The notes: generated by a model from the letters alone, not told the origin. A stretch of DNA of 35,883 bases from Deltaproteobacteria bacterium (GCA_026417175.1 JAOADT010000020.1:1-35883), one strand, 5' to 3'. Numbered from the stretch's first letter, positions 2,306 to 28,153 are shown. Numbers and translations are program-made.

Positions 2306-3310
2306 ATGAGTTCTTTTAAAGACCTTATAAACAGCATAATCTTCGCAATTGATGAAGGAAAGGTGGGAACCGTAGCTACAGTTATTAAGGCCAAAGGATC
2401 AACACCTGCACCTTCTGGATCAAAAATGTTTATTTGTGAAGATGGATCATTTATTGGGTCAGTAGGTGGAGGATGTATGGAATCAGAGATCTGGATGAGG
2501 TCCAAGTACGTGATGATGAGTAAAGAGCCACAGAAGGTTACTTTTCATCTTACGAGTGAAACTGTGGAAGATGAAGGAATGGTTTGTGGGGGAAAGGTAG
2601 AGATTTTTGTTGAACCGCTAAAGTACGAACATAAACCAATTTACAAAAAAGCTCTTGAGTGTTTTGTAAACGGAGATAGTGCGATTTTATTAACAACCAT
2701 TTCCAGACCGTATAAGAAAGTTCTGCTTACGGAAGGCGGACATGTAATAGGTGATAAAATGGAGAACCTCGAATACATCACTTCAGAATTCTTCTCATTA
2801 AAAGACCCACAAATTTTTAGAGGGGTTGTAGTAGAGCCTTTAATTTGTTATGAAGAGCTCATAATCTATGGGGCAGGTCACATATCCCAGCACGCATGTA
2901 GATTTGCGAAGGCGGTCGGTTTTTATGTAACTATTGTAGATGATAGGGAAAATTTTGCAAATAAAGAGCGCTTCCCGGAGGCAGATCGTATATTGATTGA
3001 AAAATTAACATCTCTGTCTTTAGAGGCCAGACCTCCGAAAAAAGGCTATGCAGTGATCGCAACGAGAGGTCATAAAAATGATGCATTTGTTCTTGAGCAA
3101 ATTCTTAACGATCCACCAAAATACGTAGGAATGATTGGAAGTCAAAGAAAGGTAAAAACAGTCTACAATTATTTGGAGTCAAAAGGAATTGGTAAAGACT
3201 CCTTGAAGAGGGTTCACGCTCCTATTGGGCTTAGGATCGGTGCAAAAACTCCTGAGGAAATTGGGTTAAGTATTGTGGCTGAACTAGTTAAAGAGAGAAG
3301 AAAAAGGTAA
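2306..3310 (+). CDS. XdhC/CoxI-family molybdenum-cofactor sulfuration chaperone
   Basis: 334-residue member of the XdhC/CoxI family. Members bind molybdenum cofactor and help its sulfuration and insertion into xanthine-dehydrogenase-type hydroxylases. The N-terminal XdhC domain shows GSVGGGCMES (51-60) with the conserved Cys57 and GMVCGGKVEIFVEP (from 91). The C-terminal Rossmann domain has GAGHIS at 189-194, followed by VDDREN (211-216) and, further on, GMIGSQRK. Family length is usual. No xanthine dehydrogenase, CO dehydrogenase or nucleotide-maturation gene is adjacent, so the client enzyme must be encoded elsewhere or the protein serves another role. There is no convincing Shine-Dalgarno sequence before the ATG. 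Confidence 0.85.
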   Translation: MSSFKDLINSIIFAIDEGKVGTVATVIKAKGSTPAPSGSKMFICEDGSFIGSVGGGCMESEIWMRSKYVMMSKEPQKVTFHLTSETVEDEGMVCGGKVEIFVEPLKYEHKPIYKKALECFVNGDSAILLTTISRPYKKVLLTEGGHVIGDKMENLEYITSEFFSLKDPQIFRGVVVEPLICYEELIIYGAGHISQHACRFAKAVGFYVTIVDDRENFANKERFPEADRILIEKLTSLSLEARPPKKGYAVIATRGHKNDAFVLEQILNDPPKYVGMIGSQRKVKTVYNYLESKGIGKDSLKRVHAPIGLRIGAKTPEEIGLSIVAELVKERRKR

Positions 3311-3660
3311 TTACAACCTCTCTTTTTGGAACCTGCGGTTATTTAATCGAAGAGAACGGAAATCCATCTAAAAGTAAACATAACCAGATTAGGAATAAAC
3401 AAGATTCTAAACGCAATTTTGCAAAAATCCAACTTTGATGAAGAGAAATGGGAATAGCCGAAGTAGATTTTATTCGAAATTTTTCTATTTTCTTTTTTTA
3501 CAGGGAAGCCAAAAGGAGTGCAAAAGCCTAAATAAAAACATTTAATAATTTAGGGTTAATACGATCTCTAACATCAAGTTTAGGGGTTTTTACAAGCAAA
3601 AACTTCACTGGTAAAGTAACCCAAATAATCAATTATTTATATCGACTTTTATTTTTCTTC
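3311..3660. other. Intergenic stretch with no recognised gene
   Basis: AT-rich sequence between the XdhC-like gene and the sulfur operon promoter. A short open stretch directly after the XdhC stop (reading LFGTCGYLIEENG on the + strand) has coding-like composition but no start, no signal and no recognised family. Nothing else could be supported. Confidence 0.4.
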
Positions 3661-3689
3661 TTGACATTATAACTAGGAAAAGGTACAAT
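3661..3689 (+). promoter_or_regulatory. Near-consensus sigma70 promoter of the sulfur operon
   Basis: TTGACA (3661-3666), 17 bases, TACAAT (3684-3689). Transcription would begin near 3696. That places the GTG/ATG codons at 3701-3706 too close to the 5' end and favours the ATG at 3719, which has a Shine-Dalgarno-like GAGG at 3709-3712. Confidence 0.75.
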
Positions 3690-3718
3690 TTTTAAAAATC
3701 GTGATGTTGAGGTTAGAA

Positions 3719-4951
3719 ATGTATATAATACAGGGACTGCAATGCAGAAATTGTGGAAGAAGTTACACTTTATCTCCTACTCACATATGTGAATTCTGTT
3801 TTGGGGGGCTTGATGTCGTATATGACTATTCCAAAGTAGGACATACATTCACCTTAAAGGCTCTAGAAAATAGACCATACAATATATGGAGATATAAAGA
3901 GCTACTTCCTATAGAAAAAGAGCCTGTATGCGGATTTAATGTGGGTTTTACGCCCCTACTTAGGGCAAGAAGGCTCGAAAGGCTGCTAGGAATAAAGGAA
4001 ATTTATATAAAGAATGACGCGGTGAATCATCCAACGCTATCGTTTAAGGACAGGGTAGTAGCGGTTGCAATTTCCAAGGCAGTGGAATTTGGTTACGATG
4101 TTATTTCCTGTGCCTCTACCGGAAATTTGGCTAATTCTGTTGCGGCATTGGCTGCATCATGTGGTCTGAAAAGTTATGTTTTTATTCCTTGGGATCTTGA
4201 AGCAGGGAAGGTTTTGGGAACATTGATTTATGGTGCCCATTTAATAAGGGTTAAAGGAACATACGACGACGTAAACCGACTCTGCAGTGAAATAGCAGAA
4301 AATTTTGAATGGGCATTCGTCAATATAAACATAAGACCTTTTTACGCTGAGGGATCAAAGACCTTCGGTTTTGAAATAGCAGAACAGATGAATTTTAAGT
4401 TGCCAAAACACATAGTCGTGCCGATGGGAGGGGGGTCACTTATAACAAAAATATGGAAAGCTTTTAAGGAACTACAAACACTTGGTTTCATCGATGCCAT
4501 CGAAACTAAAATGCACGGAGCACAGGCAGAAGGCGCTAACCCTATTGTATCTGCTTATAAACAGGGCAGGAAAACGATAAAACCGGTTAAGCCTAATACA
4601 ATCGCCAAGTCCTTGGCCATAGGCAACCCTGCCGATGGTGCGTATGCCTTGCAGACCATAAGAGAATCGGGTGGAACTGCCGAGGATGTAACGGACGACG
4701 AGATATTGGAAGGAATAAAAATGCTTGCCAGGGAAGAAGGTATATTTACAGAGACAGCTGGTGGCGTAACAGTAGCTGTTACCAGGAAATTGAAGGAACA
4801 AGGCGTAATCGGTGAAGACGATTCAGTTGTAATAGCTATCACAGGAAATGGTTTAAAGACCCAGGAAGTAGTCAGAAATAATATGGGAGAGCCTACTGTA
4901 ATCGAACCAAATTTGAAAGATTTTGAGAAAATTTATTGTACAGTAATCTAA
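3719..4951 (+). CDS. thrC: Threonine synthase-like PLP enzyme with N-terminal zinc ribbon
   Basis: 410-residue fold-type II PLP enzyme. Threonine synthase turns O-phosphohomoserine into threonine. An N-terminal zinc-ribbon-like motif is formed by C9/C12 and C24/C27. The PLP Schiff-base lysine is expected at K110 in LSFKDR, the phosphate-cradle loop is STGNLANS, and a glycine-rich VPMGGGS loop follows. The ATG at 3719 is chosen because the promoter at 3661-3689 and GAGG at 3709-3712 fit it better than GTG 3701. It is the first gene of a tight operon with a ThiS-like carrier, E1-like enzyme, JAMM protease and cysteine synthase. The company of sulfur-carrier genes leaves open that it uses a phosphorylated homoserine for sulfur chemistry rather than only for threonine; that is inference. 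Confidence 0.85.
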   Translation: MYIIQGLQCRNCGRSYTLSPTHICEFCFGGLDVVYDYSKVGHTFTLKALENRPYNIWRYKELLPIEKEPVCGFNVGFTPLLRARRLERLLGIKEIYIKNDAVNHPTLSFKDRVVAVAISKAVEFGYDVISCASTGNLANSVAALAASCGLKSYVFIPWDLEAGKVLGTLIYGAHLIRVKGTYDDVNRLCSEIAENFEWAFVNINIRPFYAEGSKTFGFEIAEQMNFKLPKHIVVPMGGGSLITKIWKAFKELQTLGFIDAIETKMHGAQAEGANPIVSAYKQGRKTIKPVKPNTIAKSLAIGNPADGAYALQTIRESGGTAEDVTDDEILEGIKMLAREEGIFTETAGGVTVAVTRKLKEQGVIGEDDSVVIAITGNGLKTQEVVRNNMGEPTVIEPNLKDFEKIYCTVI

Positions 4952-4962
4952 GGAGGAGACAA

Positions 4963-5475
4963 ATGGTAACGGTAAAAATTCCAGGACCTTTGAGAAAACT
5001 GACCGGCGGTAAAGACCTAATACAACTAGAGGGGGTGGTGACAGTCAAGGATGCTTTAGAAAAGTTAATAGAAACTTACCCTGAACTTGAGGACCGACTA
5101 AAAGATGAGAGGGGGCTTTTAAGGGAATTCATAAATATTTTTGTTAATAATGAGGATATAAGGTTTCTGAACGAACTTGATACCGAACTTAAGGATCAAG
5201 ATCACATAATCCTTGTCCCAGCAATAGCAGGTGGGCAGGGAAAACGGAGAGTCAAGCTTTATTTTCCCCCAGATAAAGTAAAAGAACCAGTGATTTACAA
5301 TTTAGGTCATATGTTCAAAATAGTAACAAACATACGAAAAGCCAATGTTGATGAGGATTTTGGCTGGGTCTCTCTCGAAGTGGAGGGAAGTGACGAAGAG
5401 TTCAGTAAGGCTATTGAATATCTAAAAAAACTAGGAATAAGAGTCGAGCCCATTGAAGGTGATATTTTAATCTGA
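4963..5475 (+). CDS. ThiS/MoaD-like sulfur carrier fused to a C-terminal NIL domain
   Basis: 170 residues in two parts. Residues 1-91 form a ubiquitin-like beta-grasp carrier ending in AIAGG (Gly90-Gly91), the diglycine that would be adenylated and converted to a thiocarboxylate. Residues about 96-170 match the NIL domain, known mainly from the C-terminus of the methionine-importer ATPase MetN where it binds methionine. The chain does not end at Gly-Gly, so the NIL part must be cut off before the carrier can be charged. The JAMM peptidase two genes downstream is the obvious candidate, by analogy with Mec/CysO and HcyD/HcyS. The start is ATG 4963, preceded by AGGAGG; longer in-frame starts reach into thrC and lack a ribosome site. 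Confidence 0.85.
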   Translation: MVTVKIPGPLRKLTGGKDLIQLEGVVTVKDALEKLIETYPELEDRLKDERGLLREFINIFVNNEDIRFLNELDTELKDQDHIILVPAIAGGQGKRRVKLYFPPDKVKEPVIYNLGHMFKIVTNIRKANVDEDFGWVSLEVEGSDEEFSKAIEYLKKLGIRVEPIEGDILI

Positions 5476-5484
5476 GAGCTTAAC

Positions 5485-6639
5485 ATGAATACAAAGGACG
5501 AGAAAGTACAGGAGATTTCAATCCACCAATTGGCAGAGGTCCTAAAACGTGAAAAGGACTTTCTACTTATTGACATAAGGGAAAAGTCGGAAATCCAAAC
5601 GGGATATTTGAAGGGCGCTCTGTTTATAGCACCAGATGAAATACTGGAGAAAGTTACGGAGATGGGTATAGACGGAGAAAGACCTTTGATTTTGTATTGC
5701 GGATTTGGAATAAAGTCTCTAGATGTGGGACGGAAATTAAAGAAACATGGTTATAAAAACGTCTACACCTTAAGAGAAGGATTTGAGGGTTGGCGCGCAG
5801 CTGGGTACGAATTTTCTGGTGATGCGCAGTTTTCTCCGGAACAGTTAACAAGGTATAGCCGACACATTCTTCTTAAAGAGATAGGAATCGAGGGACAGAG
5901 GAGATTAATTCAATCAAAAATTCTCATAGTGGGCGCGGGAGGTCTCGGATCCCCCTCAGCCCTTTACTTGGCAGCTGCCGGCGCGGGAACGATAGGGATT
6001 ATTGATCACGATGTTGTTGATCTGTCAAATCTTCAGAGACAGGTAATTCACACAACAGATAGGGTGGGATTACCAAAGGTCGAATCCGCTCGTGAAACTC
6101 TAAAAAAATTAAATCCTGACGTCAATATAATTACTTATAATGAAAGACTCTCAAAAGAGAATGGCCTAAGAATTTTTTCGGGATATGATATCGTGATTGA
6201 CGGATCTGACAACTTTCCTACTAAATTTCTGATAAATGATCTCGCTTTCTTTACGGGTATCCCTTATGTATTCGGTGGAGTATTCCAGTTTGAAGGACAG
6301 ATAAGCTTGTTCCATCCACACGGAGGAGGTCCGTGTCTTAGATGTGTATTCCCAAACCCTCCTCCCCAAGGTGTTGTGCCGAGTTGTAGCGAGGTTGGTA
6401 TCCTGGGGGTTGTGCCCGGCTTGATAGGTGTACTACAGGCCCAGGAATGCATAAAGGTTCTTTTGGGAATAGGTGACCCACTTATAGGGAGATTTCTAAA
6501 TTTCGATGCGTTAAGAACAAGTTTTGTCACATTTACGGTAAAGAAGAACTCTTCGTGTAGCTTATGTGGAGAAAATCCGACAATTAAAAAGATTGAAGAA
6601 TCAGAACAATTTTGTGAATCGAGGATATGGATAGCATGA
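5485..6639 (+). CDS. Rhodanese-MoeB/ThiF fusion: E1-like activating enzyme and sulfurtransferase
   Basis: 384 residues. The N-terminal rhodanese domain (about 8-112) has active-site Cys72 in the loop CGFGIKS. The C-terminal ThiF/MoeB domain (about 118-370) has the ATP-binding GAGGLGSP (150-157), a downstream Asp (GSDNFPTK region) and two zinc-binding CxxC pairs (C284/C287 and C358/C361). It should adenylate the carrier's C-terminal glycine and hand over persulfide sulfur from the rhodanese to make the thiocarboxylate. In eukaryotic MOCS3/Uba4 the rhodanese is C-terminal; here the order is swapped. The gene starts ten bases after the carrier gene and overlaps the next one, so co-translation is likely. 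The Shine-Dalgarno sequence is weak (GAGAG). Confidence 0.9.
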   Translation: MNTKDEKVQEISIHQLAEVLKREKDFLLIDIREKSEIQTGYLKGALFIAPDEILEKVTEMGIDGERPLILYCGFGIKSLDVGRKLKKHGYKNVYTLREGFEGWRAAGYEFSGDAQFSPEQLTRYSRHILLKEIGIEGQRRLIQSKILIVGAGGLGSPSALYLAAAGAGTIGIIDHDVVDLSNLQRQVIHTTDRVGLPKVESARETLKKLNPDVNIITYNERLSKENGLRIFSGYDIVIDGSDNFPTKFLINDLAFFTGIPYVFGGVFQFEGQISLFHPHGGGPCLRCVFPNPPPQGVVPSCSEVGILGVVPGLIGVLQAQECIKVLLGIGDPLIGRFLNFDALRTSFVTFTVKKNSSCSLCGENPTIKKIEESEQFCESRIWIA

Positions 6640-7046
6640 AATGGCCTCTTATTAAGATCCCTTCTATTATTTACCTAGAGATGATAAGTCACTCTCAAAA
6701 AGAGTGGCCAAATGAAGCATGCGGTATTCTTGCTGGTACCGATGATGAAGTAAGAAAGATATATCCTTTAGAAAATCAGGAAAAAAGTCCGTACAAATTC
6801 CTTATTTCTCCGCTCGACCAGTTAAAAGTCTTGTCCGACATAGAAAAAAGTGATCTCAGGATGGTTGGTGTTTACCACTCCCATCCAAATACAGACCCTT
6901 ATCCATCTAAGAGGGATTTAGAGTTTGCGATCTATCCTGATGTTTTATCAGTTATTATTTCTCTCAAAAGAAAAGAAAAGCCCAAAGTTTACATTTTTTC
7001 TTTCGAAGATGGAAATGTTAAAGAAGTTGAATATACAATCACATGA
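6636..7046 (+). CDS. JAMM/Mov34 metallopeptidase (Mec-like)
   Basis: About 136 residues. It carries the JAMM zinc-protease signature: catalytic Glu in NEACGIL, then H-S-H-P with Ser and Asp following (YHSHPNTDPYPSKRDL, a His-x-His-x7-Ser-x2-Asp spacing). Mycobacterial Mec releases cysteine from the CysO carrier, and Wolinella HcyD trims the HcyS carrier. Here the likely substrate is the carrier-NIL fusion, the carrier-cysteine adduct, or both. The ATG at 6636 forms an ATGA overlap with the stop of the upstream gene and sits 11 bases after GAGG. An alternative ATG at 6627 lies only two bases after that GAGG and is less likely. Confidence 0.88.
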   Translation: MKWPLIKIPSIIYLEMISHSQKEWPNEACGILAGTDDEVRKIYPLENQEKSPYKFLISPLDQLKVLSDIEKSDLRMVGVYHSHPNTDPYPSKRDLEFAIYPDVLSVIISLKRKEKPKVYIFSFEDGNVKEVEYTIT

Positions 7047-7055
7047 AAAGATGTC

Positions 7056-7955
7056 ATGTATTTTAATCGTTTAATCAGAAAAACAATAGTTCAAACAATA
7101 GGTAATACCCCGCTCATAAATATTTCCGGTCCAAATGTCAGTTCCCAGGTCAGAATTTTAGCTAAAGCTGAATTTATGAATCCTGGGGGATCCATTAAAG
7201 ATCGAACTGCCTTTAGAATCATAAAAGATGCTTTTGACACAGGGAGACTGAACAGTTCAAAGATGTTACTGGATGCTACCTCTGGAAATACCGGTATAGC
7301 GTACTCGATGATATGTGCAGGCATAAATGTACCTGTGGAGCTTGTGGTTCCTGGAAATATCAATCCTATAAAAAAAAGAATTATGGAAGCTTTTGGTGCT
7401 AAACTCATACTCAGTGATCCTTTGGAAGGCTCAGAAGGGGCATACAAGTTGGCCCAGAAAATTTACGAGCGATACCCTGAGAAATATTTTTTCGGAAATC
7501 AGTATAAAAACCGATCAAATTTTCTTGCACATTATGAATCAACTGGGAGTGAGATTCTAAAACAAACAAAGGGTAAAATCACACACTTTGTGGCCACTTT
7601 AGGTACAGGGGGAACCATTTTCGGGATAGGCAAGCGATTAAAAAACTTTAATCCGCACATAAAGGTAATATGCGTTCAGCCAGATGATGATTTCCACGGG
7701 ATAGAAGGTTTAAGACATGTAAGAGAACTTAAAACCAACGGTATTTACGTAGAGTCGGTGATTGATGAGGTCGTATATGTCAAAACTGAGGAGGCCTACA
7801 GTGCTCAAAGGTCAATAGCGAAGGAAACTGGCATCCTGGTTGGTTTCTCATCTGGTGCTTCTTTTTTTGTTGCAACTCAATTAGCCAGTTCGTTAAAAAA
7901 AGGGTTAGTGGTGACTATATTTCCTGACCGAGGAGAAAGGTACGTTTCTTTATAA
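7056..7955 (+). CDS. Cysteine synthase family PLP enzyme (CysM/CysK-like)
   Basis: 299-residue fold-type II PLP enzyme with the Schiff-base lysine K48 in NPGGSIKDR, the substrate loop SGNTGIA and the PLP-phosphate loop GTGGT. It would add sulfur to an activated serine. In this operon the sulfur donor is probably the carrier thiocarboxylate, as for mycobacterial CysM with CysO, not free sulfide. The segment GIEGLRHV lies where O-phosphoserine sulfhydrylases have an arginine for the phosphate, which hints at O-phosphoserine as substrate; this rests on memory of the family. The last gene of the operon, ten bases after the JAMM gene, with a weak ribosome site. The C-terminus is complete for a short family member. 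Confidence 0.88.
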   Translation: MYFNRLIRKTIVQTIGNTPLINISGPNVSSQVRILAKAEFMNPGGSIKDRTAFRIIKDAFDTGRLNSSKMLLDATSGNTGIAYSMICAGINVPVELVVPGNINPIKKRIMEAFGAKLILSDPLEGSEGAYKLAQKIYERYPEKYFFGNQYKNRSNFLAHYESTGSEILKQTKGKITHFVATLGTGGTIFGIGKRLKNFNPHIKVICVQPDDDFHGIEGLRHVRELKTNGIYVESVIDEVVYVKTEEAYSAQRSIAKETGILVGFSSGASFFVATQLASSLKKGLVVTIFPDRGERYVSL

Positions 7956-8000
7956 TTTTTAAGAGGTACTTAGAAAAAACAAAACATATACCGGTTAGAG

Positions 8001-8288
8001 CCAAAGGACCTTACGTTAATTATTGGTTCCTTTGGTGCATGCTCGGTGCTGGTTTATGGTGCTCCAAAATCGCCATTTCCACATACTAGAAATTTTGATT
8101 GGTGCTCATGTCATTTCGGCTACACTTGGGAGTCTTAGCTCAGAAATTATTTATTGATCCAGTTGTGGCTATTCCTTTTGTCTTTGACACAGCTATTTTA
8201 TTAATGCATCTTATCCGAAGGACTTCATCCGCCGGGTTAAGCGACGGTACTAACTGCAGTAATAGATAGAATATATCCTAAATATTGA
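8001..8288 (+). pseudogene. HPP-family integral membrane protein, decayed remnant
   Basis: Joining frames recovers the family hallmarks in order: LIIGSFGACSVLVYGAPKSP, then TRN; after a one-base shift IGAHVISATLGSLSSE; then ILLMHLIRRT; and after more shifts HPPG followed by ATVLTAVID and a terminal RIYPKY. HPP proteins are four-helix membrane proteins with a conserved HPP motif, some linked to nitrite transport. At least three frame changes and an in-frame stop are needed. The jump from AVID to the terminal RIYPKY suggests loss of the last helix. The N-terminus is also missing, and no promoter or ribosome site was found. Confidence 0.7.
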
Positions 8289-8592
8289 CTCTATTTAGTT
8301 AGTAGGAAAAGGTTGAGTTTGCCCTGAATGTACTTTTTAATTGATCGTTTCTTAATTCATTTTTTCTTGAGTATTGTAATGATTTGAGACTTGCAGCTTG
8401 GTGTTAGCATAGTGGATTTTAGTATGAGCTTTTATCAGCTAGAGGAACTAATTAATTCAATAAGTAAACACTATTTAAAAATCATCTTTTAAGAACGTAC
8501 CAAGGCTTAAGGGACTATTTAGCAATCTAAATCTGATTAAGACGATAAAATATATGAGACATACGGGATAATTACCTATTCCTTTTCAATTT
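8289..8592. other. Intergenic stretch with no recognised gene
   Basis: Between the HPP remnant and the end of fdhD. AT-rich and full of stops on both strands. No RNA gene, terminator hairpin or repeat was recognised. Confidence 0.4.
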
Positions 8593-9369
8593 TTATTCCT
8601 GCAGTCTTTCAGGATGGGTGTAAACAGAGTACCGGTAGCTAGTTGCATGACAGATAAGGGTGATCCCGGCTTCCTGGGCCATGGTAAAGGCCCTTGCGGT
8701 AGGAGAATGTCTCGATATCACGATTGGCACTCCCATTTTTGATGCTTTTATCAGCATCTCTGAGGATACTCTACCCGTTGTCAGGAGAATTTTATCTTTA
8801 GGATCCACATTTCTAAAGAGACATTCGCCCATTATTTTATCCACCGTATTGTGTCTTCCTACATCCTCTGCGATAATCAAAATCTGGTTAGTGTCTGCCA
8901 ACGCAGAGGCATGAACCCCTCCGCTGATTTTGAAAAGCTCAGCTTTTTCTTGAAAGCTTTTCATGAGAAAAGGGATTTGTTTCACTCCAACGGTTATGGA
9001 TGATTCGATTTTTTGTAGATCGGTTTGAAAGACAGAGCCACCCCCGCATCCAGAGGTAAGAACTTTGGTTTTTTTTAAGTTAAATTCCGCATTTTTTATT
9101 CTCACATTGACGATTTTCTCATCATCGCACAATCCCAAGACAAGCACATCTTCAATCTTTTTTATTAAATTTTCGAAAAAAAGAAAACCCACTATTAAGA
9201 AATTTGTCTTAACAGGAGTGCATTGAATAGTAATCATTTCATAACCATTGACGTAAAGGGTCAAACTGACTTCTTGCGGAAGATAGGTGAAACTTTCCGA
9301 GAATCCAAATCCTGAGTATTTTAAATGTGTAATAGCCCCGAATATCCCTTTATACAACTCTAGGTTCAT
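8593..9369 (-). CDS. fdhD: FdhD-family formate dehydrogenase sulfurtransferase/chaperone
   Basis: 258 residues. FdhD moves sulfur from a cysteine desulfurase to the Mo/W-bis-pyranopterin cofactor and is needed for active formate dehydrogenase. Visible family marks are LTSGCGGGS around Cys108, DVGRHNTVDKIMGECL and TTGRVSSEML. The E. coli enzyme has a CxxC pair at this loop; here only Cys108 remains, with glycines in place of the second Cys. No formate dehydrogenase subunit is in the window, so its client is elsewhere. The ATG at 9369 lacks a good ribosome site, and the predicted start should be treated as approximate. It is one of the few intact genes in the decay zone. Confidence 0.88.
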   Translation of the reverse strand: MNLELYKGIFGAITHLKYSGFGFSESFTYLPQEVSLTLYVNGYEMITIQCTPVKTNFLIVGFLFFENLIKKIEDVLVLGLCDDEKIVNVRIKNAEFNLKKTKVLTSGCGGGSVFQTDLQKIESSITVGVKQIPFLMKSFQEKAELFKISGGVHASALADTNQILIIAEDVGRHNTVDKIMGECLFRNVDPKDKILLTTGRVSSEMLIKASKMGVPIVISRHSPTARAFTMAQEAGITLICHATSYRYSVYTHPERLQE

Positions 9370-17337: not shown

Positions 17338-20059
17338 TTATACATCTTTTGTATTCCAGCTCATCTTTTTTCTAATCAAGAATTTGATAATCTCCATAGA
17401 TATAAAAATAATTAGTCCGAAGGTCAGAATTAAAATGAGATCAGACTTAGTAGGAGTAAGAATCCCAAACGCATTACGAATTGAAGGCACATGTAACACA
17501 ATAATTATAAGCAATATCTCCCATCCTATAGCAAGTAACAACCACCTATGGGGCGGTGTCTTGAAAATACTATATCTCAAGGACCGGAAATTCAAAGCTA
17601 TGGTCAACTCTACAACCACAAAAAGGAGGAAAATCTCAGTCCGAGCATGCGCGATGTCTCTTAGGTTATGAAAATAAAGAAAATAAAAGAATGGAATTTC
17701 CACAACAAGTGCAAGGAGAATAAAGGCCTTCACATCCCATGAAAATACACTTTCTTTTGGGTCACGTGGAGGTCTTTGCATTACGTCCGGTTCAGGGGGA
17801 GAAACTCCAAGCGCAATCGCTGGAAGTCCGTCTGTCGCTAAATTTATATATAGAATTGCAGCAGGAAGCAAAGGCAAATATTCTGGACCCATTATAAGAA
17901 CAATTCCGCCTATAACCACAACTTCTGTTATATTACATCTGAGAAGGTAGGTGAGATATTTTTTAATGTTGTCGTAAATCCATCTTCCAAGTTCGATTGC
18001 CTTAACTATCGTGGCAAAGTTGTCATCTGTTAAGACCATGTCTGAAGCTTCTTTTGTTACTTCAGTACCGGTGATCCCCATAGCGATACCAATGTCAGCG
18101 TGTTTTAACGCGGGTGCATCGTTGACACCGTCACCGGTCATGGCAACTATTTCACCCCTATTTTTCCAAGCTTTCACAATCTTCAGTTTATCCATCGGGG
18201 AAACCCTGGCATAAACAGTTACCTTATCTACTATTTTTTCAAGTTCTTCTTCAGAAATTTTTTCAAGTTCCTCTCCAGTTAGGACAATATCACCCTCTTT
18301 AAAAATTCCTATCTCCCGTGCCACCGCAACTGCAGTAAGTTTGTGGTCTCCAGTTATCATCACAGGTTTTATGCCAACCTGCTTGCATATTTTTGTCGCT
18401 TCAATTGCTTCCTCCCTTGGAGGATCAATCATACCTATAAGGCCTAGAAAAATCATCCCTTTCTCAATATTATGTTCCGCAATTTCGTCTACTCCATTAT
18501 CTATGTGCTTATAAGCTACGCCCAGCACTCTCAGTGCCTCGTTGGCCATCTCCTCATTGATTTTTAAAATTTTATTTACATGAGATTCGGTCAGTTCTCT
18601 TAGTTCTCCGTTTTCTAAAATAAACGAGCACTCGCTCAAAACTATCTCAGGCGCTCCCTTCATAAACGCAATTAACTTATTTTCCTTCGTCCTGTGAATG
18701 GTTGTCATTCTTTTCCTTTCAGAGCTAAAAGGTATCTCACCAATACGGGGCTTCTCAAGTCTATTCTTTCTGAAGTCAACCCCTCCTTTTTTGGCGACGA
18801 CCAAAAGGGCCCCCTCTGTAGGGTCTCCTTTTACAAACCACTTTCCCGCGTGTTCATATAGATCTGCATCGTTACACAGAGTAACACCCTCAAGTAACAG
18901 ACCCAATGCCTTATCTTATGTAGGGTCAATTTTTTCTGAACCCCTTAGTTCGCCTTGGGGTGCATATCCAATACCTGTAACTTCGATGATTCTCTCAGAA
19001 GAAAAAAAGTTTCCTTACCGTCATTTCTCCCTTTGTCAAGGTTCCTGTCTTATCCGAACATATAACAGTCGTACACCCAAGGGTCTCCACTGCGGGCATC
19101 TTTCTAACAAGGGCATTTCTTTTGGCCATCTGGCGCATCCCAATTGCTAATGCTCCTGTAACGATCGCAGGTAGCGACTCAGGAACAGCAGCGACCGCAA
19201 GGGAAATAACAAACATGGCGAGTGTGATTGCTGAGGGAAGGTCTATTTTGCCACCAGAGAGAAACTCTCTTAATACGCTCACGCCTCCAACAAAAATACA
19301 CACACTCACAGCTATTATTCCGAGCCATCTTCCTATCTCCTCTGTTCTTCTCTCAAGCGGAGTTTTTTCAGTTTTTATTCCTGTCAACTGTTCCGCTATC
19401 TTGCCAAATTCGGTTTTCATGCCAGTAGAAGTAACAACTACCTTACCTCTACCATAGGTCACAGTAGTGCCGGCAAACACCATGTTTTTTCGGTCAGGAA
19501 CAGCCACGTCTTGGGACATTGTTTTTGTGTGTTTTCCTACCGGCGCAGACTCTCCTGTAAGCGCTGCCTCATCACATCTCAATGAATAACTTTCTATCAA
19601 TCTTCCATCTGCAGGTATTTTATCACCAGCCTCCAAAATCAGAATGTCTCCAGGAACTACGTCTTTTGTTAGTACTTCCTTTTCTTTCCCATCTCTCAAA
19701 ACTGTGATGGTGGGAGAGAGCATTTTTTTTAGCGCTTCTAAAGCTTTCTCCGCCCTGTATTCTTGGATAAATCCCAAAACCGCACAAAAAAAGACTATGA
19801 CTCCGATGATAACTGCGTCAAGAAATTCTCCAACAAGTGCGGAAAGGCCTATAGCGATAAGAAGTATAATAATTAAAATATTCTTGAATTGACGGATAAA
19901 AATGTCGAATGGAGAAACCCTTTCTTCTGATTTTAACTCATTATATCCAAACTCTTTTAACCGCGTTTCTATCTCACTTTCCGATAAGCCGTTAATAGCA
20001 TCTGTGTTGAGTTCTTTTATGACTTGTGATACGTCCATAGCATGCCAAGGGCGTGTCAT
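17338..20059 (-). pseudogene. Ca2+-type cation-transporting P-type ATPase, interrupted
   Basis: About 900 codons of a P2-type ATPase (SERCA/PMR1-like) in two open pieces. The first (20059-18995) has the cation-ATPase N domain, the actuator motif LTGES, the transmembrane ion motif PESLP and the phosphorylation site CSDKTGTLT. Between the pieces lie a frameshift in a run of seven A/T at 19002-19008 and a TAA at 18916-18918. The intervening sequence still reads SERIIEVTGIGYAPQGEL. The second piece (to 17338) has KGDPTEGALL, MTGDGVNDAPALKHADIGIA and the C-terminal helices. The start has an excellent AAAGGAGGG seven bases ahead. With two lesions within 100 bases the pump is probably dead; the homopolymer alone could be a sequencing error, the stop could not. 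Confidence 0.85.
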
Positions 20060-21570: not shown

Positions 21571-22199
21571 AAGAATGGTTCGTAAAAAAGTTAGTTGAAA
21601 GGACGATAAAAAAACTGACCGAGAATGGATTTAAAGCTAGTTATTTTGAAGATAGAAATACATTACGTGAATCAGTCTTAAGTATCATTCCACCGGGTGC
21701 TACAATCGGGGTAGGAGGGTCCGTGACTGTAAGAGAACTTGGTATAGTGGAAATTCTAAATGGGCGTGGATTTACAGTGTATGACCATTGGAAAGAAGGA
21801 TTGTCAAATGAGGAAAGAGCTAGAATAAGAAAAGCTCATCTTACTTGTCAGGTTTTCATAACAGGCACAAACGCAATTACGGAAGATGGAGAGATTGTGA
21901 ATATTGATGGGATCGGTAATAGGGTAGCTAGCATGATTTATGGACCTGAAACCGTTATAGTAATAGCAGGATACAAAAAGATTGTAAAGAACCTACAAAG
22001 TGCCATAGAGAGAATAAAATCTATTGCTGCGCCAATGAATGCGAAAAGGTTGAATTTGACCTTGCCGTGTTCGGAATACGGGTACTGCACGAACTGTAAA
22101 TCTGAAAAAAGAATCTGTAGAATTCTGACAGTAATTCAAAAACGGCCGCCTGAAACAGAAATGTATATTTTTATCATAAATGAGGATATTGGCTTTTAG
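21567..22199 (+). CDS. LUD-domain protein (LutC/YkgG-like) with a C-terminal cysteine cluster
   Basis: 210 residues. The LUD domain (lactate utilisation, formerly DUF162) is shown by TIGVGGSVTVRELG, FITGTNAITEDGEIVNIDG and GNRVASMIYGPETVIVIAG. Members are often parts of lactate-oxidation complexes, but many single-domain copies have unknown roles. Near the C-terminus C168, C174, C177 and C184 form a C-x5-C-x2-C-x6-C array that could hold a metal or FeS cluster. No lactate-oxidation partner genes are adjacent. It is co-translated with the radical SAM gene. Confidence 0.85.
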   Translation: MKEWFVKKLVERTIKKLTENGFKASYFEDRNTLRESVLSIIPPGATIGVGGSVTVRELGIVEILNGRGFTVYDHWKEGLSNEERARIRKAHLTCQVFITGTNAITEDGEIVNIDGIGNRVASMIYGPETVIVIAGYKKIVKNLQSAIERIKSIAAPMNAKRLNLTLPCSEYGYCTNCKSEKRICRILTVIQKRPPETEMYIFIINEDIGF

Positions 22200-22212
22200 T
22201 AGGGAGGTAGAT

Positions 22213-22803
22213 ATGCCAATACAACGGGCAATTATAAGTGTGTCCAACAAGATAGGTCTTTCTGAACTTGGACCTTTTTTAAAAACTTACAACGTTGAGA
22301 TATTATCTACTGGTGGTACAAAAAAGTATCTCGAAAGCTTGGGTATAGAGACATTGGAGATAAGTGCGTATACAGGTTTTCCTGAGATTATGGATGGACG
22401 AGTAAAAACGCTTCACCCTAAGGTGCACGGAGGTATTTTGAATATAAGAGATAATAAGGATCATCAAAAGGCTATGGAGCTTCATGGTATAAAACCCATA
22501 GATTTGATAATAGTCAATCTTTACCCATTCAGAGAAGTTGTGGCGGCAAAATGCACGTTTGAGGAAGCCATTGAAAATATCGATATCGGTGGTCCTTCCA
22601 TGATCAGGGCTGCTGCAAAAAATTTTAGATATGTAACTGTGATTGTTGATCCAGATGATTATCCTGAGCTCATGAAGAACATGAGAGCAAATAATGGTGA
22701 CACTACTTTGGAATTCCGCTTTTATTTGGCAAAGAAGGTTTTCAATCTAACTTACCAGTACGACAGGGCCATTTTCGAATATTTGGCATCGGCAAAGCTT
22801 TAA
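22213..22803 (+). CDS. purH: IMP cyclohydrolase (PurH N-terminal domain only)
   Basis: 196 residues matching the MGS-fold cyclohydrolase half of PurH, which closes FAICAR to IMP, the last step of purine synthesis. Key motifs are STGGT (32-36), DGRVKTLHPKVHGG and DLIIVNLYPF with NIDIGGPSMIRAAAKN. The AICAR transformylase half, about 320 residues in bifunctional PurH, is absent and does not follow, so the formyl transfer must be done by a separate enzyme. This split is known in some anaerobes. The start is ATG 22213 after GGGAGG; a longer frame from 22180 overlaps the LUD gene without a ribosome site. PurD follows ten bases later. Confidence 0.9.
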   Translation: MPIQRAIISVSNKIGLSELGPFLKTYNVEILSTGGTKKYLESLGIETLEISAYTGFPEIMDGRVKTLHPKVHGGILNIRDNKDHQKAMELHGIKPIDLIIVNLYPFREVVAAKCTFEEAIENIDIGGPSMIRAAAKNFRYVTVIVDPDDYPELMKNMRANNGDTTLEFRFYLAKKVFNLTYQYDRAIFEYLASAKL

Positions 22804-24112: not shown

Positions 24113-25186
24113 ATGGGTAAAACATACAACGTTGCGGTAATCCCAGGGGATGGAACAGGCCCGGAGGTAATAGCCGAGGGAATAAAAGTATTAAACGCTT
24201 GTTCGTCAAAATTGAATTTCAAAATAAACTATACCTTCTATGATGTTGGAGGTGAAAGGTACTTAAAAACCGGTGAAACTCTTCCCGATTCCGTACTTTT
24301 AGAACTAAAAAAACATGACGCTATATACTTAGGCGCCGTTGGACATCCTGATGTGAAACCTGGAATTTTGGAAAAAGGAATACTTCTGCGTATAAGATTT
24401 GAGTTGGATCAGTATATAAACTTAAGGCCCGTAAAGCTCTACGAGGGAGTTGAAACTCCCATAAAAAACAAGGGGCCAAACCACATAAATTTTACCGTAA
24501 TTAGGGAGAATACAGAGGGTCTTTACGCGGGATCTGGTGGTTTCTTAAGAAAGGGAACCCCTGACGAGATTGCAGTACAGGAATCGATAAACACGCGAAA
24601 GGGTGTGGAGAGGTGCATCAGATTCGCTTTTGAATATACGAGAAAAAAGGGGAGATATAAAAAACTCACTTTATGCGGAAAGACGAATGTTCTAACTTAT
24701 GCGTTTGACCTGTGGGAACGAGTTTTTAATGAAGTTTCCAGAGAATATCCAGACATAGAGACGGATTATGCCCATGTAGATGCCATCTGTATGTGGATGG
24801 TAAAAAATCCAGAATGGTTCGATGTAATAGTGACCGACAACATGTTTGGAGATATAATAACAGACCTAGGGGCGATAATCCAGGGAGGATTAGGTATAGC
24901 AGCAGGTGGAAACATCAACCCAGAAGGGGTCTCCATGTTCGAACCCATGGGAGGGTCCGCACCAAAATATGCCGGTAGAAACATGATAAACCCTCTTGCA
25001 GCCATCCTGGCCGGTGCGATGATGCTCGAGAATTTGGGGGAAGAAAAGGGTGCGGGTTTGATTGAAGAAGCGGTAAAAAAAGCAGTGAAGGAGAACATTA
25101 AATCATTGGAAGCCGGAAAAATGGGTATGGGAACGAAGGAAGTAGGAGACCTTATAGCAAAATATGTGTCAGATTCCCCCGTGTGA
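24113..25186 (+). CDS. Isopropylmalate/isocitrate dehydrogenase family enzyme
   Basis: 357-residue NAD(P)-dependent beta-decarboxylating dehydrogenase. Family marks are IPGDGTGPEV, the substrate-helix region RIRFELDQYINLRP, the Lys/Asp catalytic segment CGKTNVLTYA, HVDAICMWMV, VTDNMFGDIITDLGA and the nucleotide loop EPMGGSAPKYAG. The best general match is 3-isopropylmalate dehydrogenase (LeuB). However, no leucine genes are adjacent, and the substrate helix is not the plain LeuB pattern, so isocitrate-, homoisocitrate- or tartrate-type activity cannot be excluded. AAAGGAG precedes the ATG. It ends the purine operon, and the next gene has its own promoter. Confidence 0.85.
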   Translation: MGKTYNVAVIPGDGTGPEVIAEGIKVLNACSSKLNFKINYTFYDVGGERYLKTGETLPDSVLLELKKHDAIYLGAVGHPDVKPGILEKGILLRIRFELDQYINLRPVKLYEGVETPIKNKGPNHINFTVIRENTEGLYAGSGGFLRKGTPDEIAVQESINTRKGVERCIRFAFEYTRKKGRYKKLTLCGKTNVLTYAFDLWERVFNEVSREYPDIETDYAHVDAICMWMVKNPEWFDVIVTDNMFGDIITDLGAIIQGGLGIAAGGNINPEGVSMFEPMGGSAPKYAGRNMINPLAAILAGAMMLENLGEEKGAGLIEEAVKKAVKENIKSLEAGKMGMGTKEVGDLIAKYVSDSPV

Positions 25187-25208: not shown

Positions 25209-25237
25209 TTGACACTTATTTTTTTTCTTTGTATTTT
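25209..25237 (+). promoter_or_regulatory. Promoter of the VOC / reductase / aminotransferase unit
   Basis: TTGACA (25209-25214), 17 bases, TATTTT (25232-25237). Transcription would begin near 25244, inside the palindrome at 25237-25251. The -35 is perfect, the -10 moderate. Confidence 0.5.
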
Positions 25238-25251
25238 GTATACAGTATACA
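25237..25251. promoter_or_regulatory. Perfect 15-bp palindrome, likely repressor operator
   Basis: TGTATACAGTATACA: two seven-base arms around a single central base. It covers the predicted transcription start. Operators with a TGTATACA core are typical of GntR-type (FCD/VanR-like) repressors of catabolic genes. No such regulator is encoded in the window. Confidence 0.5.
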
Positions 25252-25271
25252 TTTTATCCTGTGGGGAAACT

Positions 25272-25700
25272 GTGAAAATAGAAAAAATAGATCACCTATG
25301 TTTCGCTGTTCAAAGTATAGAAGAGGTAAAGAAAAAATATTTAGATCATTTCGGACTTTTTCCTGCCTTTGAATACGTTGCCGATAGCGAGAAAATACAT
25401 GTGGTCCGATACGTTATAGGGGACGTAGGGATAGAGTTTATGGAGCCTACATCAGAGGACAGTGAGGTGGCAAAATTTCTTTCAAAAAAAGGTGAGGGTC
25501 TCTATCTTATCGCGTATAAAGTTGATAATCTCAAAAATGCGCTCCATGAACTTATGAGTAAAAATGTAAAATTGATAGATAAAGAGCCACGGGAATTGTT
25601 TGGAACTAAATATGCGTTTATCCATCATCCCCGTGAGCTTCACGGGGTACTAATAGAATTAGTTGAGGGGGAGTTCGATATAGGAAAACAGGAGGAATAA
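25272..25700 (+). CDS. VOC-family protein resembling methylmalonyl-CoA epimerase
   Basis: 142 residues starting at GTG 25272 after GGGGA; the longer frame upstream would translate the promoter and operator. It resembles methylmalonyl-CoA epimerase: DHLCFAV with His8, IEFMEP, DSEVAKFLSKKGEG, and the end HPRELHGVLIELVE. Epimerases usually read GEGLHHIAF, where a His binds the metal. Here the segment is GEGLYLIAYKV, so that ligand is lost. The protein may bind metal differently or have another reaction. It leads a unit with a saccharopine-dehydrogenase-like reductase and a class III aminotransferase. Confidence 0.75.
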   Translation: MKIEKIDHLCFAVQSIEEVKKKYLDHFGLFPAFEYVADSEKIHVVRYVIGDVGIEFMEPTSEDSEVAKFLSKKGEGLYLIAYKVDNLKNALHELMSKNVKLIDKEPRELFGTKYAFIHHPRELHGVLIELVEGEFDIGKQEE

Positions 25701-25701
25701 A

Positions 25702-26856
25702 ATGAAAGTTGTGGTAGTTGGAGGAGCAGGTAGTATGGGACAGGCAGTTGTAAGGGATTTAATAAAACAGGAAATTTTTGATAAAGTAGTCATTTCGGAC
25801 GTAACACTCGATAAGGAAAGAATCAGCGAAAAAATTCTCATGAACAAAAAGACAGCTCTTGAAAATGTCGATCTTTACGAATACGAAAAACTTCTCAATG
25901 TCATAAGTGGTGCTAAGATAGTTGTTAACTGCGCGGGACCATTTTATAAGACGACAATGGCCGTAGTGAGAGCGGCTTTAGAAGCAAAAGCAAACTATAT
26001 TGATATATGTGACGACTACGAGGCTACACAAATGCTTTTATCGGATCCTACCCTTAATGCAGAAGCGATAAAATCAAATATAATCATCTTGACAGGTATG
26101 GGTTCAGACCCTGGTACTAATAATATACTTGCCAAATGGTATGCGGAAAAAATGGATTTCGTAGAAGACATTTTCCTCTATTGGGTGGTTAGTATAGCTG
26201 AAATATCGGGAGCTGCAATGGATCACAGTCTGCATATGATAATTGGCAAAGTGCCACAATACATAAATGGGGAACTTGTTTATTTAGAGGGGGGTGAAGG
26301 AGCAGAGACAGTAGTATTTTTACCCCCTGTTGGAGAATGTATTGTTCGATTCGTTGGTCATCCACAACCCTTAACGCTCCCAAAATATATAAAGGGGGTA
26401 AGAAACGTAATTATAAAGGGCGCCTTGTTCCCCAAATGGGTGGACGAATACATTATCACTCAAAAAGAAATGGGGTTTCTCCAGAATAAAACTATTAGAT
26501 TTAAAGAAGTTGAAATTACACCCTATGAATTAACGTTAATTTTATGGCATAACATAAAAGAATCAAAGGATAAAGGACCATCAGCCTCTGCACTCAAAGT
26601 TGTGGTAAAAGGAAAAAAAGGGGCAAAAAAGGTTCGATATACCGCTGACATACTTGGAAGGATGGCTCCGGGAACGGGTTTGCCTGCAGGGATAGCAGCG
26701 GGAATGATCGCAAAAGGTATTATAAAAGAAAAAGGTGTTCTTGTACCTGAGGCTTGCGTAGATCCGAAAATGTTCCTATCTGAATTCATAAAAAGAGGGG
26801 CCAAGATCTATGAACAATACACGGAAGAAAGAACTTTAGATATTGAAGACTTATAA
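25702..26856 (+). CDS. Saccharopine-dehydrogenase-like oxidoreductase
   Basis: 384 residues. An N-terminal Rossmann fold (VVVVGGAGSMGQAVVRDLIK, then ISDV and VVNCAGPFYKTTM) is followed by the large substrate domain of the Lys9/LysDH superfamily. Further motifs are NYIDICDDYEA, LTGMGSDPGTNNILA, and near the end ILGRMAPGTGLPAGIAAGMI. Members reduce or oxidise imino or keto derivatives of amino acids with NAD(P). The reaction here cannot be told. A good GGAGGA lies five bases ahead of ATG 25702, and the gene begins one base after the VOC stop. The aminotransferase gene follows at once, so an amino/keto interconversion of one substrate is plausible. Confidence 0.8.
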   Translation: MKVVVVGGAGSMGQAVVRDLIKQEIFDKVVISDVTLDKERISEKILMNKKTALENVDLYEYEKLLNVISGAKIVVNCAGPFYKTTMAVVRAALEAKANYIDICDDYEATQMLLSDPTLNAEAIKSNIIILTGMGSDPGTNNILAKWYAEKMDFVEDIFLYWVVSIAEISGAAMDHSLHMIIGKVPQYINGELVYLEGGEGAETVVFLPPVGECIVRFVGHPQPLTLPKYIKGVRNVIIKGALFPKWVDEYIITQKEMGFLQNKTIRFKEVEITPYELTLILWHNIKESKDKGPSASALKVVVKGKKGAKKVRYTADILGRMAPGTGLPAGIAAGMIAKGIIKEKGVLVPEACVDPKMFLSEFIKRGAKIYEQYTEERTLDIEDL

Positions 26857-26878
26857 AAATAGCTTAATGGAGGAAGTC

Positions 26879-28153
26879 ATGTTAGACGTACAACCTCTCA
26901 ACATTAAAAAAAGTATGGAGTTGTATAGCGAGGCCAACGAGTTAATTCCAGGGGGGGTTTTGGGTGCCAGAAAACCAACAGATTTTATCTTTGGAGAATA
27001 TCCTATCTTTCTAGAGTATGGGAAGGGATGTAGACTGATAGATGTCGATGGAAATGAGTTTATAGACTTTATGTGTGGTTACGGTCCTATAATTCTTGGC
27101 TATCGTGAAGAAGAAGTGGACGATGCGGTAATTAGACAGATTAAAGAGAAGGGGTTCTGCTTCACGTTGACGCAGCCTTATCAAAACGCGCTGGCGAAAA
27201 AGATAAGAGAACATGTCCCATCAGCAGAGATGTGCATTTTTCTCAAAACCGGATCAGATGCGACCACCGCAAGTATAAGAATAGCGCGTGCACACACCAA
27301 TAGAATCAAAATTATGAGATGCGGGTATCACGGATGGCATGACTGGTGCGTGGAGATGAAAGGAGGGATACCAAAAAAGCTTTATGAGGACGTTTTTGAG
27401 TTTCACTATAACGATCTTGATTCCCTTGAAAGGCTAATGGAACAACACGGTCATGAAACAGCTGCTATAATAATGACACCATTTGGGCACCATCTTCACC
27501 AGAAAATGCAGGAACCAAAAGCTGGCTTTTTGGAGGGAGTAAGAAGTCTTGCTGATAAGTACGGTGCTGTGCTTATTTTCGACGAAGTAAGGACGTGCTT
27601 TAGGTTGAGGATGGGTGGTGCGCAAGAGTTGTATGGCGTAAAACCTGACTTAACGGTTCTTGGTAAAGGTATGGCTAATGGTTATGCTATAAGCGTCGTT
27701 GCGGGCAAAAAAGAAATTATGATGGCCGCAAAAGACAGATTGTTTATTTCATCCACTTTCTTTCCCAACAGCGATGGTTATATAGCAGCTCTCAAAACTA
27801 TAGAAATCCTAGAAAGAGACAAGGTTATAGATACTCTTTGGGAGCGCGGGGGTAGGTTTTTAAATAAAGTTCGTAAAGTTATATCTAAGTATAAGGTAAA
27901 TGCAGAGCTTAGTGGGGTTGCTCCAATGTTCTTCATCACTTTCGAGGACAAGGACCCAGAAATTCGAAGGGGTAAGAGAAACGAGTTTTATACACAACTA
28001 ATAAGAAGAGGCTTCTTTTTTGCTCCGCACCATCACGCGTATATTTGTTATAGACACGCGGACAACGACCTGGATAAGGCCGTGAACGCTATAGAAGAAT
28101 CCCTAAAGTGTGTTGAAAAAAAGTACGGAAGTAAAAGTGATAACTACCGATAA
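26879..28153 (+). CDS. Class III PLP aminotransferase, glutamate-1-semialdehyde-mutase-like
   Basis: 424 residues. PLP lysine K263 lies in LGKGMANG, the ring-nitrogen Asp in FDEVRT, and the cofactor loop in KTGSDATTASIRIAR with YHGWHDW. The overall pattern FDEVRTCFRLRMGGAQELYGVKPDL is close to glutamate-1-semialdehyde aminotransferase. The end differs (FFAPHHHAYICYRH), and haem genes are absent, so it is probably an amino- or beta-amino-acid transaminase or aminomutase. The start is ATG 26879 behind GGAGGA; the longer frame begins with TTG inside the upstream gene. Third gene of the operator-controlled unit. Confidence 0.8.
   Translation: MLDVQPLNIKKSMELYSEANELIPGGVLGARKPTDFIFGEYPIFLEYGKGCRLIDVDGNEFIDFMCGYGPIILGYREEEVDDAVIRQIKEKGFCFTLTQPYQNALAKKIREHVPSAEMCIFLKTGSDATTASIRIARAHTNRIKIMRCGYHGWHDWCVEMKGGIPKKLYEDVFEFHYNDLDSLERLMEQHGHETAAIIMTPFGHHLHQKMQEPKAGFLEGVRSLADKYGAVLIFDEVRTCFRLRMGGAQELYGVKPDLTVLGKGMANGYAISVVAGKKEIMMAAKDRLFISSTFFPNSDGYIAALKTIEILERDKVIDTLWERGGRFLNKVRKVISKYKVNAELSGVAPMFFITFEDKDPEIRRGKRNEFYTQLIRRGFFFAPHHHAYICYRHADNDLDKAVNAIEESLKCVEKKYGSKSDNYR

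What the first reader, a model, noticed from the sequence alone, without database searches (positions are those of the whole stretch)
25209..28153. Operator-controlled three-gene unit for an unknown amino-acid or acyl-CoA pathway
A VOC protein like methylmalonyl-CoA epimerase but without the usual His ligand, a saccharopine-dehydrogenase-like reductase and a GSA-type aminotransferase lie behind one promoter with a perfect palindrome. No known pathway in my memory uses these three together. The isopropylmalate-dehydrogenase-like gene just before could add a fourth step.
Basis: partly seen in the sequence, partly recalled or inferred. Interest (0 to 1): 0.62.

Follow-up and report, generated by a model that had tools for sequence, protein, structure and literature searches.

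The report
Extra genes for anaerobic auxin breakdown
Three uncharacterised enzyme genes behind one operator turn out to belong to the set that strictly anaerobic bacteria probably use to break down the plant hormone indole-3-acetate, which gives a testable place to look for how these bacteria handle the awkward nitrogen-bearing ring.

Summary
In detail: VOC (start GTG 25272; TTG 25209 is the -35 box), a saccharopine-dehydrogenase-like reductase (SDH) and a GSA-type aminotransferase (AT) follow one promoter with a perfect palindrome, TGTATACAGTATACA (25237-25251). The pathway is not unknown. The SDH-AT pair is adjacent in 70 of 78 Desulfobacterota loci. In some relatives (G022, G011) VOC-SDH-AT lies inside one run with indoleacetate (iaa) genes: class III CoA-transferase, B12 mutase and MeaB, hydantoinase, PaaK-like ligase, molybdenum hydroxylases and an acyl-CoA dehydrogenase with the published IaaF GGG motif. 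In the window's genome these parts are scattered, but three of the four exact WTTGTATACAAW sites precede the CoA-transferase, GGG-dehydrogenase/ETF and Mo-hydroxylase/TRAP operons, and a GntR-FCD regulator lies in the first. In relative G003 VOC directly follows the mutase genes, so it is probably the epimerase for the benzylmalonyl-type CoA ester, although its methylmalonyl-CoA-epimerase His ligand is lost family-wide. SDH and AT most likely remove the aryl-derived nitrogen together with the second Mo enzyme; that step is inferred only. The upstream gene is the genome's only LeuB and is not part of it. Verdict: a variant of a known pathway with untested enzymes.

The parts
   Evidence: a TTGACA at similar distance is visible in relatives' upstream sequences
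25237..25251 (.). operator TGTATACAGTATACA, perfect palindrome, probably bound by a GntR/FCD repressor
   Evidence: binding not shown
25272..25700 (+). VOC protein, methylmalonyl-CoA-epimerase-like without the third His ligand; probable epimerase for the benzylmalonyl-/phenylsuccinyl-type CoA ester next to the B12 mutase
   Evidence: VOC directly follows the mutase genes in L095; MCE epimerises benzylmalonyl-CoA in PMC8360864
25702..26856 (+). saccharopine-dehydrogenase-fold NAD(P) enzyme (C-N oxidoreductase family), nearly always next to AT
26879..28153 (+). class III (GSA-type) PLP aminotransferase, 69-86% identical across the phylum
24113..25186 (+). leuB, 3-isopropylmalate dehydrogenase: neighbour, judged NOT part of the unit

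Best explanation
The unit is an accessory operon of the anaerobic indoleacetate (auxin) degradation regulon of Desulfobacterota. Inferred course: an aromatic-acid TRAP transporter brings in the acid; a PaaK-like ligase makes the CoA ester; Mo hydroxylase 1 oxidises the pyrrole ring; an ATP-dependent hydantoinase (HyuAB) opens it to a (2-aminophenyl)succinyl unit; a class III CoA-transferase and a B12 mutase (with MeaB) give (2-aminobenzyl)malonyl-CoA; a GGG-type acyl-CoA dehydrogenase decarboxylates it, and beta-oxidation leaves 2-aminobenzoyl-CoA. VOC supplies the correct stereoisomer around the mutase, as methylmalonyl-CoA epimerase does for methylmalonyl-CoA. SDH and AT, with the second, 4-hydroxybenzoyl-CoA-reductase-like Mo enzyme (Mo2), remove the aryl-derived nitrogen after the ring has been activated. 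A GntR-FCD regulator using GTATAC palindromes co-controls all these promoters. Shown here by sequence: gene content, linkage and shared operator. Inferred: every catalytic step of VOC, SDH, AT and Mo2, and the inducer. My separate odds: pathway membership about 0.88, VOC as epimerase about 0.65, SDH/AT as nitrogen-removing steps about 0.35.
For: One contiguous same-strand run CoA-transferase-MeaB-IaaF-ETF-GntR-mutase-HyuAB-PaaK-Mo1-VOC-SDH-AT-Mo2 in G022, and the same set with Mo2 before VOC in G011. MeaB-IaaF-ACD-B12-mutase-VOC-SDH-AT in G003. SDH-AT directly followed by CoA-transferase, ETF, GntR, B12, mutase and HyuA in a Desulfomonile, with the operator before both SDH and the CoA-transferase gene. 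Family calls: CoA_transf_3, MeaB, mutase, hydantoinase A/B, PaaK-like, FCD. GGG in place of YEG, the published IaaF hallmark, in relatives' dehydrogenases and in the window's own genome behind an operator and before ETF-beta. Three of four exact WTTGTATACAAW sites in G000 precede CoA-transferase, GGG-dehydrogenase and Mo2-TRAP operons. Co-occurrence of SDH with the CoA-transferase: 34 both, 4 and 6 alone, 16 neither, Fisher p=1.4e-6, or 0.007 within the order. One SDH-AT operon also holds indolepyruvate:ferredoxin oxidoreductase alpha (663 bits against 651) and a TrpB-like gene. Closest solved relatives of the TRAP binding protein are, from memory, aromatic-acid binders. Methylmalonyl-CoA epimerase restarts IaaF by epimerising benzylmalonyl-CoA (PMC8360864).
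Against: No expression or biochemical data. The whole-genome relatives are mostly draft MAGs related by descent, so the Fisher values overstate independence. Six iaa-positive genomes lack SDH (G002, G006, G014, G031, G045, G055), so SDH-AT is not essential to the core pathway, and G041 and G057 (94-97% complete) have SDH-AT without a detected CoA-transferase. VOC scores below the methylmalonyl-CoA-epimerase cut-off (99 against 114.95 bits) and lacks a metal ligand; in many SDH-AT loci no VOC was detected nearby. Aminotransferases do not act on aryl amines, so the SDH/AT role requires prior ring activation that is not shown. In the window's genome the parts lie on four contigs.
Confidence: 0.7

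Rival explanations
1. Mo2 alone removes the nitrogen by reductive deamination of 2-aminobenzoyl-CoA to benzoyl-CoA (as 4-hydroxybenzoyl-CoA reductase removes a hydroxyl), and SDH-AT act elsewhere, for example on a side substrate imported by the TRAP system.
For: Mo2 is closest to 4-hydroxybenzoyl-CoA reductase (FAD subunit 227 bits against cut-off 404.55). In Desulfatiglans anilini such enzymes appear only on aniline or 4-aminobenzoate and were suggested to deaminate 4-aminobenzoyl-CoA (PMC7500099); Azoarcus evansii turns anthranilate into benzoyl-CoA anaerobically (PMC4539516). G002 keeps Mo2 and the benzoyl-CoA-pathway hydrolase and lacks SDH-AT.
Against: G000, G001 and G052 have SDH-AT and no 6-oxocyclohex-1-ene-1-carbonyl-CoA hydrolase over the cut-off. 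YqeB, a maturation factor of selenium-dependent Mo hydroxylases, sits beside the unit in several genera, which hints at hydroxylation rather than reduction. SDH and AT are next to Mo2 in many genomes.
Confidence: 0.3
2. SDH and AT feed the pathway from above: they convert an amino- or imino-bearing indolic compound into indoleacetate or its CoA ester.
For: SDH-AT-VOC is followed by TrpB-like, class I aminotransferase and indolepyruvate oxidoreductase genes in L105. In the window's family, TRAP genes and SDH-AT-VOC are both absent in G002 while the iaa core stays.
Against: A separate class I aminotransferase already fits the tryptophan step there. SDH-AT is linked to Mo2, and in Desulfobacula to a thiolase, i.e. 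to the lower part of the pathway.
Confidence: 0.15
3. SDH-AT is a beta-amino-acid or diamine catabolic pair, unrelated to indoleacetate, that shares a regulator and location by accident.
For: The SDH fold is nearest to carboxyspermidine and L-lysine dehydrogenases. A 30%-identical relative in Rhizobium lies beside a beta-keto acid cleavage enzyme and CoA-transferases.
Against: Contiguity with iaa genes in several families of the phylum, shared operators and co-occurrence.
Confidence: 0.08

Closest known systems
iaa operon of Aromatoleum aromaticum and Azoarcus evansii (anaerobic indoleacetate metabolism; PMC8360864, PMC9613470)
   Same: PaaK-like ligase, hydantoinase-like hydrolase, class III CoA-transferase, B12 mutase with MeaB, GGG-type acyl-CoA dehydrogenase; iaa operons with their own ETF were already reported for sulfate reducers (PMC8360864).
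   Different: Here VOC, SDH, AT and a second Mo hydroxylase are added, with a GntR-FCD regulator and a TRAP transporter; no counterpart of SDH or AT is named in the sources I could read. The original descriptions (2012, 2016) were not available.
Methylmalonyl-CoA epimerase (TIGR03081)
   Same: Fold, first His and last Glu ligands, place next to a B12 mutase in G003.
   Different: Below the curated cut-off; third-ligand His replaced by hydrophobic residues in all 21 members aligned.
Carboxyspermidine dehydrogenase / L-lysine 6-dehydrogenase / saccharopine reductase
   Same: Fold (TM 0.71-0.81 over the query for the first two), PF03435 and PF16653.
   Different: About 20% identity; the His-Glu-Glu triad of carboxyspermidine dehydrogenase (PMC10413350) is GHPQP here.
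Glutamate-1-semialdehyde aminomutase (HemL) and aminopentol aminotransferase
   Same: Class III PLP fold, catalytic Lys263.
   Different: 269 bits against a HemL cut-off of 527; its own tight clade, 69-86% identical within the phylum.

Membership tests
anaerobic indoleacetate (iaa) pathway | PaaK-like CoA ligase, hydantoinase A/B, class III CoA-transferase, B12 mutase and MeaB encoded together | tested here: met
   G000:C7 (L229, L233)
anaerobic indoleacetate (iaa) pathway | acyl-CoA dehydrogenase with GGG instead of YEG (IaaF class) | tested here: met
   RDARFLLYGGGTHEV in G000:C11; LLFGGGTSEI or LLYGGGTSEI in relatives. Whether the G000 copy is IaaF itself or its GGG paralogue was not resolved.
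anaerobic indoleacetate (iaa) pathway | VOC-SDH-AT physically or regulatorily linked to the iaa core | tested here: met
   contiguity in relatives; operators in G000
anaerobic indoleacetate (iaa) pathway | induction by, and growth on, indoleacetate | not testable with these tools
   needs culture or proteomics
methylmalonyl-CoA epimerase | curated score cut-off of TIGR03081 | tested here: not met
   99.0 against 114.95 bits
methylmalonyl-CoA epimerase | complete metal-ligand set (His, Gln/Glu, His, Glu; ligand assignment from memory) | tested here: not met
   third-ligand His absent in all members
saccharopine / carboxyspermidine dehydrogenase | saccharopine-dehydrogenase domains PF03435 and PF16653 | tested here: met
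   57.6 and 51 bits, over the cut-offs
saccharopine / carboxyspermidine dehydrogenase | His-Glu-Glu active-site triad of carboxyspermidine dehydrogenase | tested here: not met
   invariant GHPQP at that place
glutamate-1-semialdehyde aminomutase (HemL) | TIGR00713 cut-off | tested here: not met
   268.7 against 527.3 bits
3-isopropylmalate dehydrogenase (neighbour) | NF002898 cut-off | tested here: met
   543.5 against 393 bits
GntR/FCD-regulated promoter | regulator of that family encoded in an operon with a matching palindrome | tested here: met
   L229:8881-9567, site at L229:10849
GntR/FCD-regulated promoter | binding of the regulator to the window operator | not testable with these tools
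   needs EMSA or DAP-seq

The most novel reading that the evidence does not exclude
Mo2, SDH and AT form a route for 2-aminobenzoyl-CoA that does not use benzoyl-CoA reductase: water-derived hydroxylation of the ring by Mo2, NAD(P)H reduction of the resulting imine tautomer by SDH, and transfer of the amino group by AT, so that the window's organism degrades the auxin ring without the 6-oxocyclohexene-CoA hydrolase it seems to lack.
Probability: 0.12. Interest if true: 0.85.

Novelty: new variant of a known kind. Interest (0 to 1): 0.52.

Why it matters
Anaerobic breakdown of indoleacetate is characterised in denitrifiers only down to 2-aminobenzoyl-CoA. This gives strict anaerobes a defined, co-regulated set of candidate enzymes for the stereochemistry of the B12 step and for nitrogen removal, and the operator allows the rest of the regulon to be found. 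It also replaces three misleading automatic names (methylmalonyl-CoA epimerase, saccharopine dehydrogenase, glutamate-1-semialdehyde aminomutase) in a widespread group of sediment and digester bacteria.

Tried and rejected
Lysine via saccharopine or aminoadipate, with LeuB as homoisocitrate-type enzyme and the Mo enzyme as aldehyde oxidase: dropped when the context proved to be iaa and LeuB housekeeping. SDH/AT making 6-oxocyclohex-1-ene-1-carbonyl-CoA for the benzoyl-CoA pathway: weakened because G000 and G001 have no hydrolase over the cut-off. Molybdenum-cofactor maturation by SDH/AT: suggested by YqeB, MoeA-like and MoaD-like neighbours, no further support. Purine, hydantoin and nicotinate catabolism: no matching gene sets. 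Plasmid relatives gave only distant homologues (at most 37% identity); useful only for the Rhizobium beta-keto-acid context. The AT structure model was too poor to use (pLDDT 52). Paper searches for the gene set itself found nothing. The in-frame TGA reported in the G000 Mo2 match is not treated as selenocysteine: the ORF is 756 aa without a stop.

Full report
OBSERVATION. The window carries, on the + strand, leuB (24113-25186), a promoter with a perfect palindrome, and three genes: VOC 25272-25700, SDH 25702-26856 and AT 26879-28153. The proposed TTG start at 25209 is the -35 box of TTGACA-17-TATTTT; the family alignment starts at GTG 25272. The palindrome TGTATACAGTATACA (25237-25251) overlaps the last base of the -10 box. 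It is unique in the window (expected 0.00) and in the 2.15-Mb genome at up to one mismatch. The same motif lies upstream of the orthologous genes in relatives: 16 sites in 81 loci against 0 for the control pattern.

PROTEINS. VOC matches Glyoxalase_4 and is closest to methylmalonyl-CoA epimerase, but below its cut-off (99 against 114.95 bits). All 21 members aligned keep H8 and E129 and lack the third-ligand His. SDH has both saccharopine-dehydrogenase domains. Its model (pLDDT 87) is closest to carboxyspermidine dehydrogenase and L-lysine dehydrogenase, without the catalytic His-Glu-Glu of the former. AT is a class III PLP enzyme near, but not in, the HemL family, 69-86% identical across the phylum.

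CONSERVATION. SDH is found in 38 of 60 relatives, counting two pieces cut at contig ends. The pair is adjacent in 70 of 78 loci where AT could be placed. Named carriers include Syntrophorhabdaceae, Desulfomonile, Desulfobacula, Desulfosarcina cetonica and strain NaphS2. Recurrent neighbours are one orthologous Mo-hydroxylase large subunit (34 loci) with FAD and FeS subunits, VOC, and in Desulfobacula-type loci YqeB, a thiolase and a MoeA-like gene. The large subunit is nearest to 4-hydroxybenzoyl-CoA reductase.

PATHWAY. In the window's genome the Mo-hydroxylase ortholog (72% identical) lies on contig C4 beside a TRAP transporter. Searching for palindromes and GntR regulators led to G000:C7: class III CoA-transferase, GntR-FCD, MeaB, B12 subunit, mutase, HyuA, HyuB, PaaK-like ligase and a second Mo hydroxylase. 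This is the published gene set for anaerobic indoleacetate degradation (PMC8360864, PMC8453981, PMC9613470). A discriminating test is the IaaF motif: IaaF proteins carry GGG where other acyl-CoA dehydrogenases carry YEG. The dehydrogenases in the relatives' operons carry GGG, as does one in G000:C11, followed by ETF-beta. In G022 and G011 all these genes and VOC-SDH-AT form one same-strand run. In G003 VOC follows the mutase by 88 bases and SDH-AT follow VOC. In a Desulfomonile SDH-AT precede the iaa operon, with the operator before each. Of four exact WTTGTATACAAW sites in G000, three precede the C7, C11 and C4 operons. Co-occurrence of SDH with the CoA-transferase is 34/4/6/16 (p=1.4e-6; within the order p=0.007; not corrected for descent). 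A further operon adds a TrpB-like gene, a class I aminotransferase and indolepyruvate oxidoreductase alpha.

HOW IT PROBABLY WORKS. VOC next to a B12 mutase recalls methylmalonyl-CoA epimerase next to its mutase. IaaF is enantiospecific, and a bacterial methylmalonyl-CoA epimerase was shown to epimerise benzylmalonyl-CoA, so VOC is most simply a dedicated epimerase; the altered ligand set leaves its mechanism open. For SDH and AT the evidence is positional: they travel with Mo2 and sometimes a thiolase, i.e. with the end of the pathway, where 2-aminobenzoyl-CoA is formed. I take nitrogen removal after ring activation as most likely (about 0.35), against reductive deamination by Mo2 alone with SDH-AT elsewhere (0.30). 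Every iaa-positive genome without SDH-AT has the 6-oxocyclohexene-CoA hydrolase (6 of 6; one of them, G055, just under the cut-off), while seven iaa-positive genomes with SDH-AT show none over the cut-off, two of these having only partial hits. This is suggestive, small in number, and limited by draft genomes.

LEUB. It passes the LeuB cut-off, the only other Iso_dh in the genome is isocitrate dehydrogenase, and it keeps company with purH-purD. It is not a fourth step.

LIMITS. Everything is computational, on MAGs. The two primary iaa papers were not available (the 2012 paper was tried), so I cannot say whether SDH, AT and VOC were noted before. The aromatic-ligand identity of the TRAP binding-protein structures and the metal-ligand positions of methylmalonyl-CoA epimerase are from memory.

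Noticed in passing
L105:7932-12959 and L111:2489 onward: SDH-AT-VOC followed by a TrpB-like gene (TIGR01415), a class I aminotransferase and indolepyruvate:ferredoxin oxidoreductase alpha: a possible tryptophan or indole feeder into indoleacetyl-CoA.
   Followed up: partly
L156:7286-8089 (Desulfosarcina cetonica): An Asp/Glu/hydantoin racemase (PF01177) follows AT and no VOC was detected in that locus: possibly a swapped epimerase.
   Followed up: partly
window 17338-20059 (-): A P-type calcium ATPase-like gene is split over two reading frames: frameshift or assembly error.
   Followed up: no
window 22180-22803: PurH is only about 200 aa (apparently the IMP cyclohydrolase part) here and in relatives of the same order, so the transformylase must be encoded elsewhere.
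   Followed up: no
window 2306-9369: Cluster of XdhC-like, MoaD/MoeB-like, JAMM, CysK-like and FdhD-like genes on the same contig: molybdenum-enzyme maturation, fitting a genome with seven XDH-family matches.
   Followed up: no
L176:5806-9588 (Rhizobium phaseoli plasmid): A distant SDH relative beside a beta-keto acid cleavage enzyme and CoA-transferases: a lead to beta-amino-acid dehydrogenases.
   Followed up: partly
G002 (same family): L194, L235: The iaa core and Mo2 are kept while VOC-SDH-AT and the adjacent TRAP genes are not found there.
   Followed up: partly
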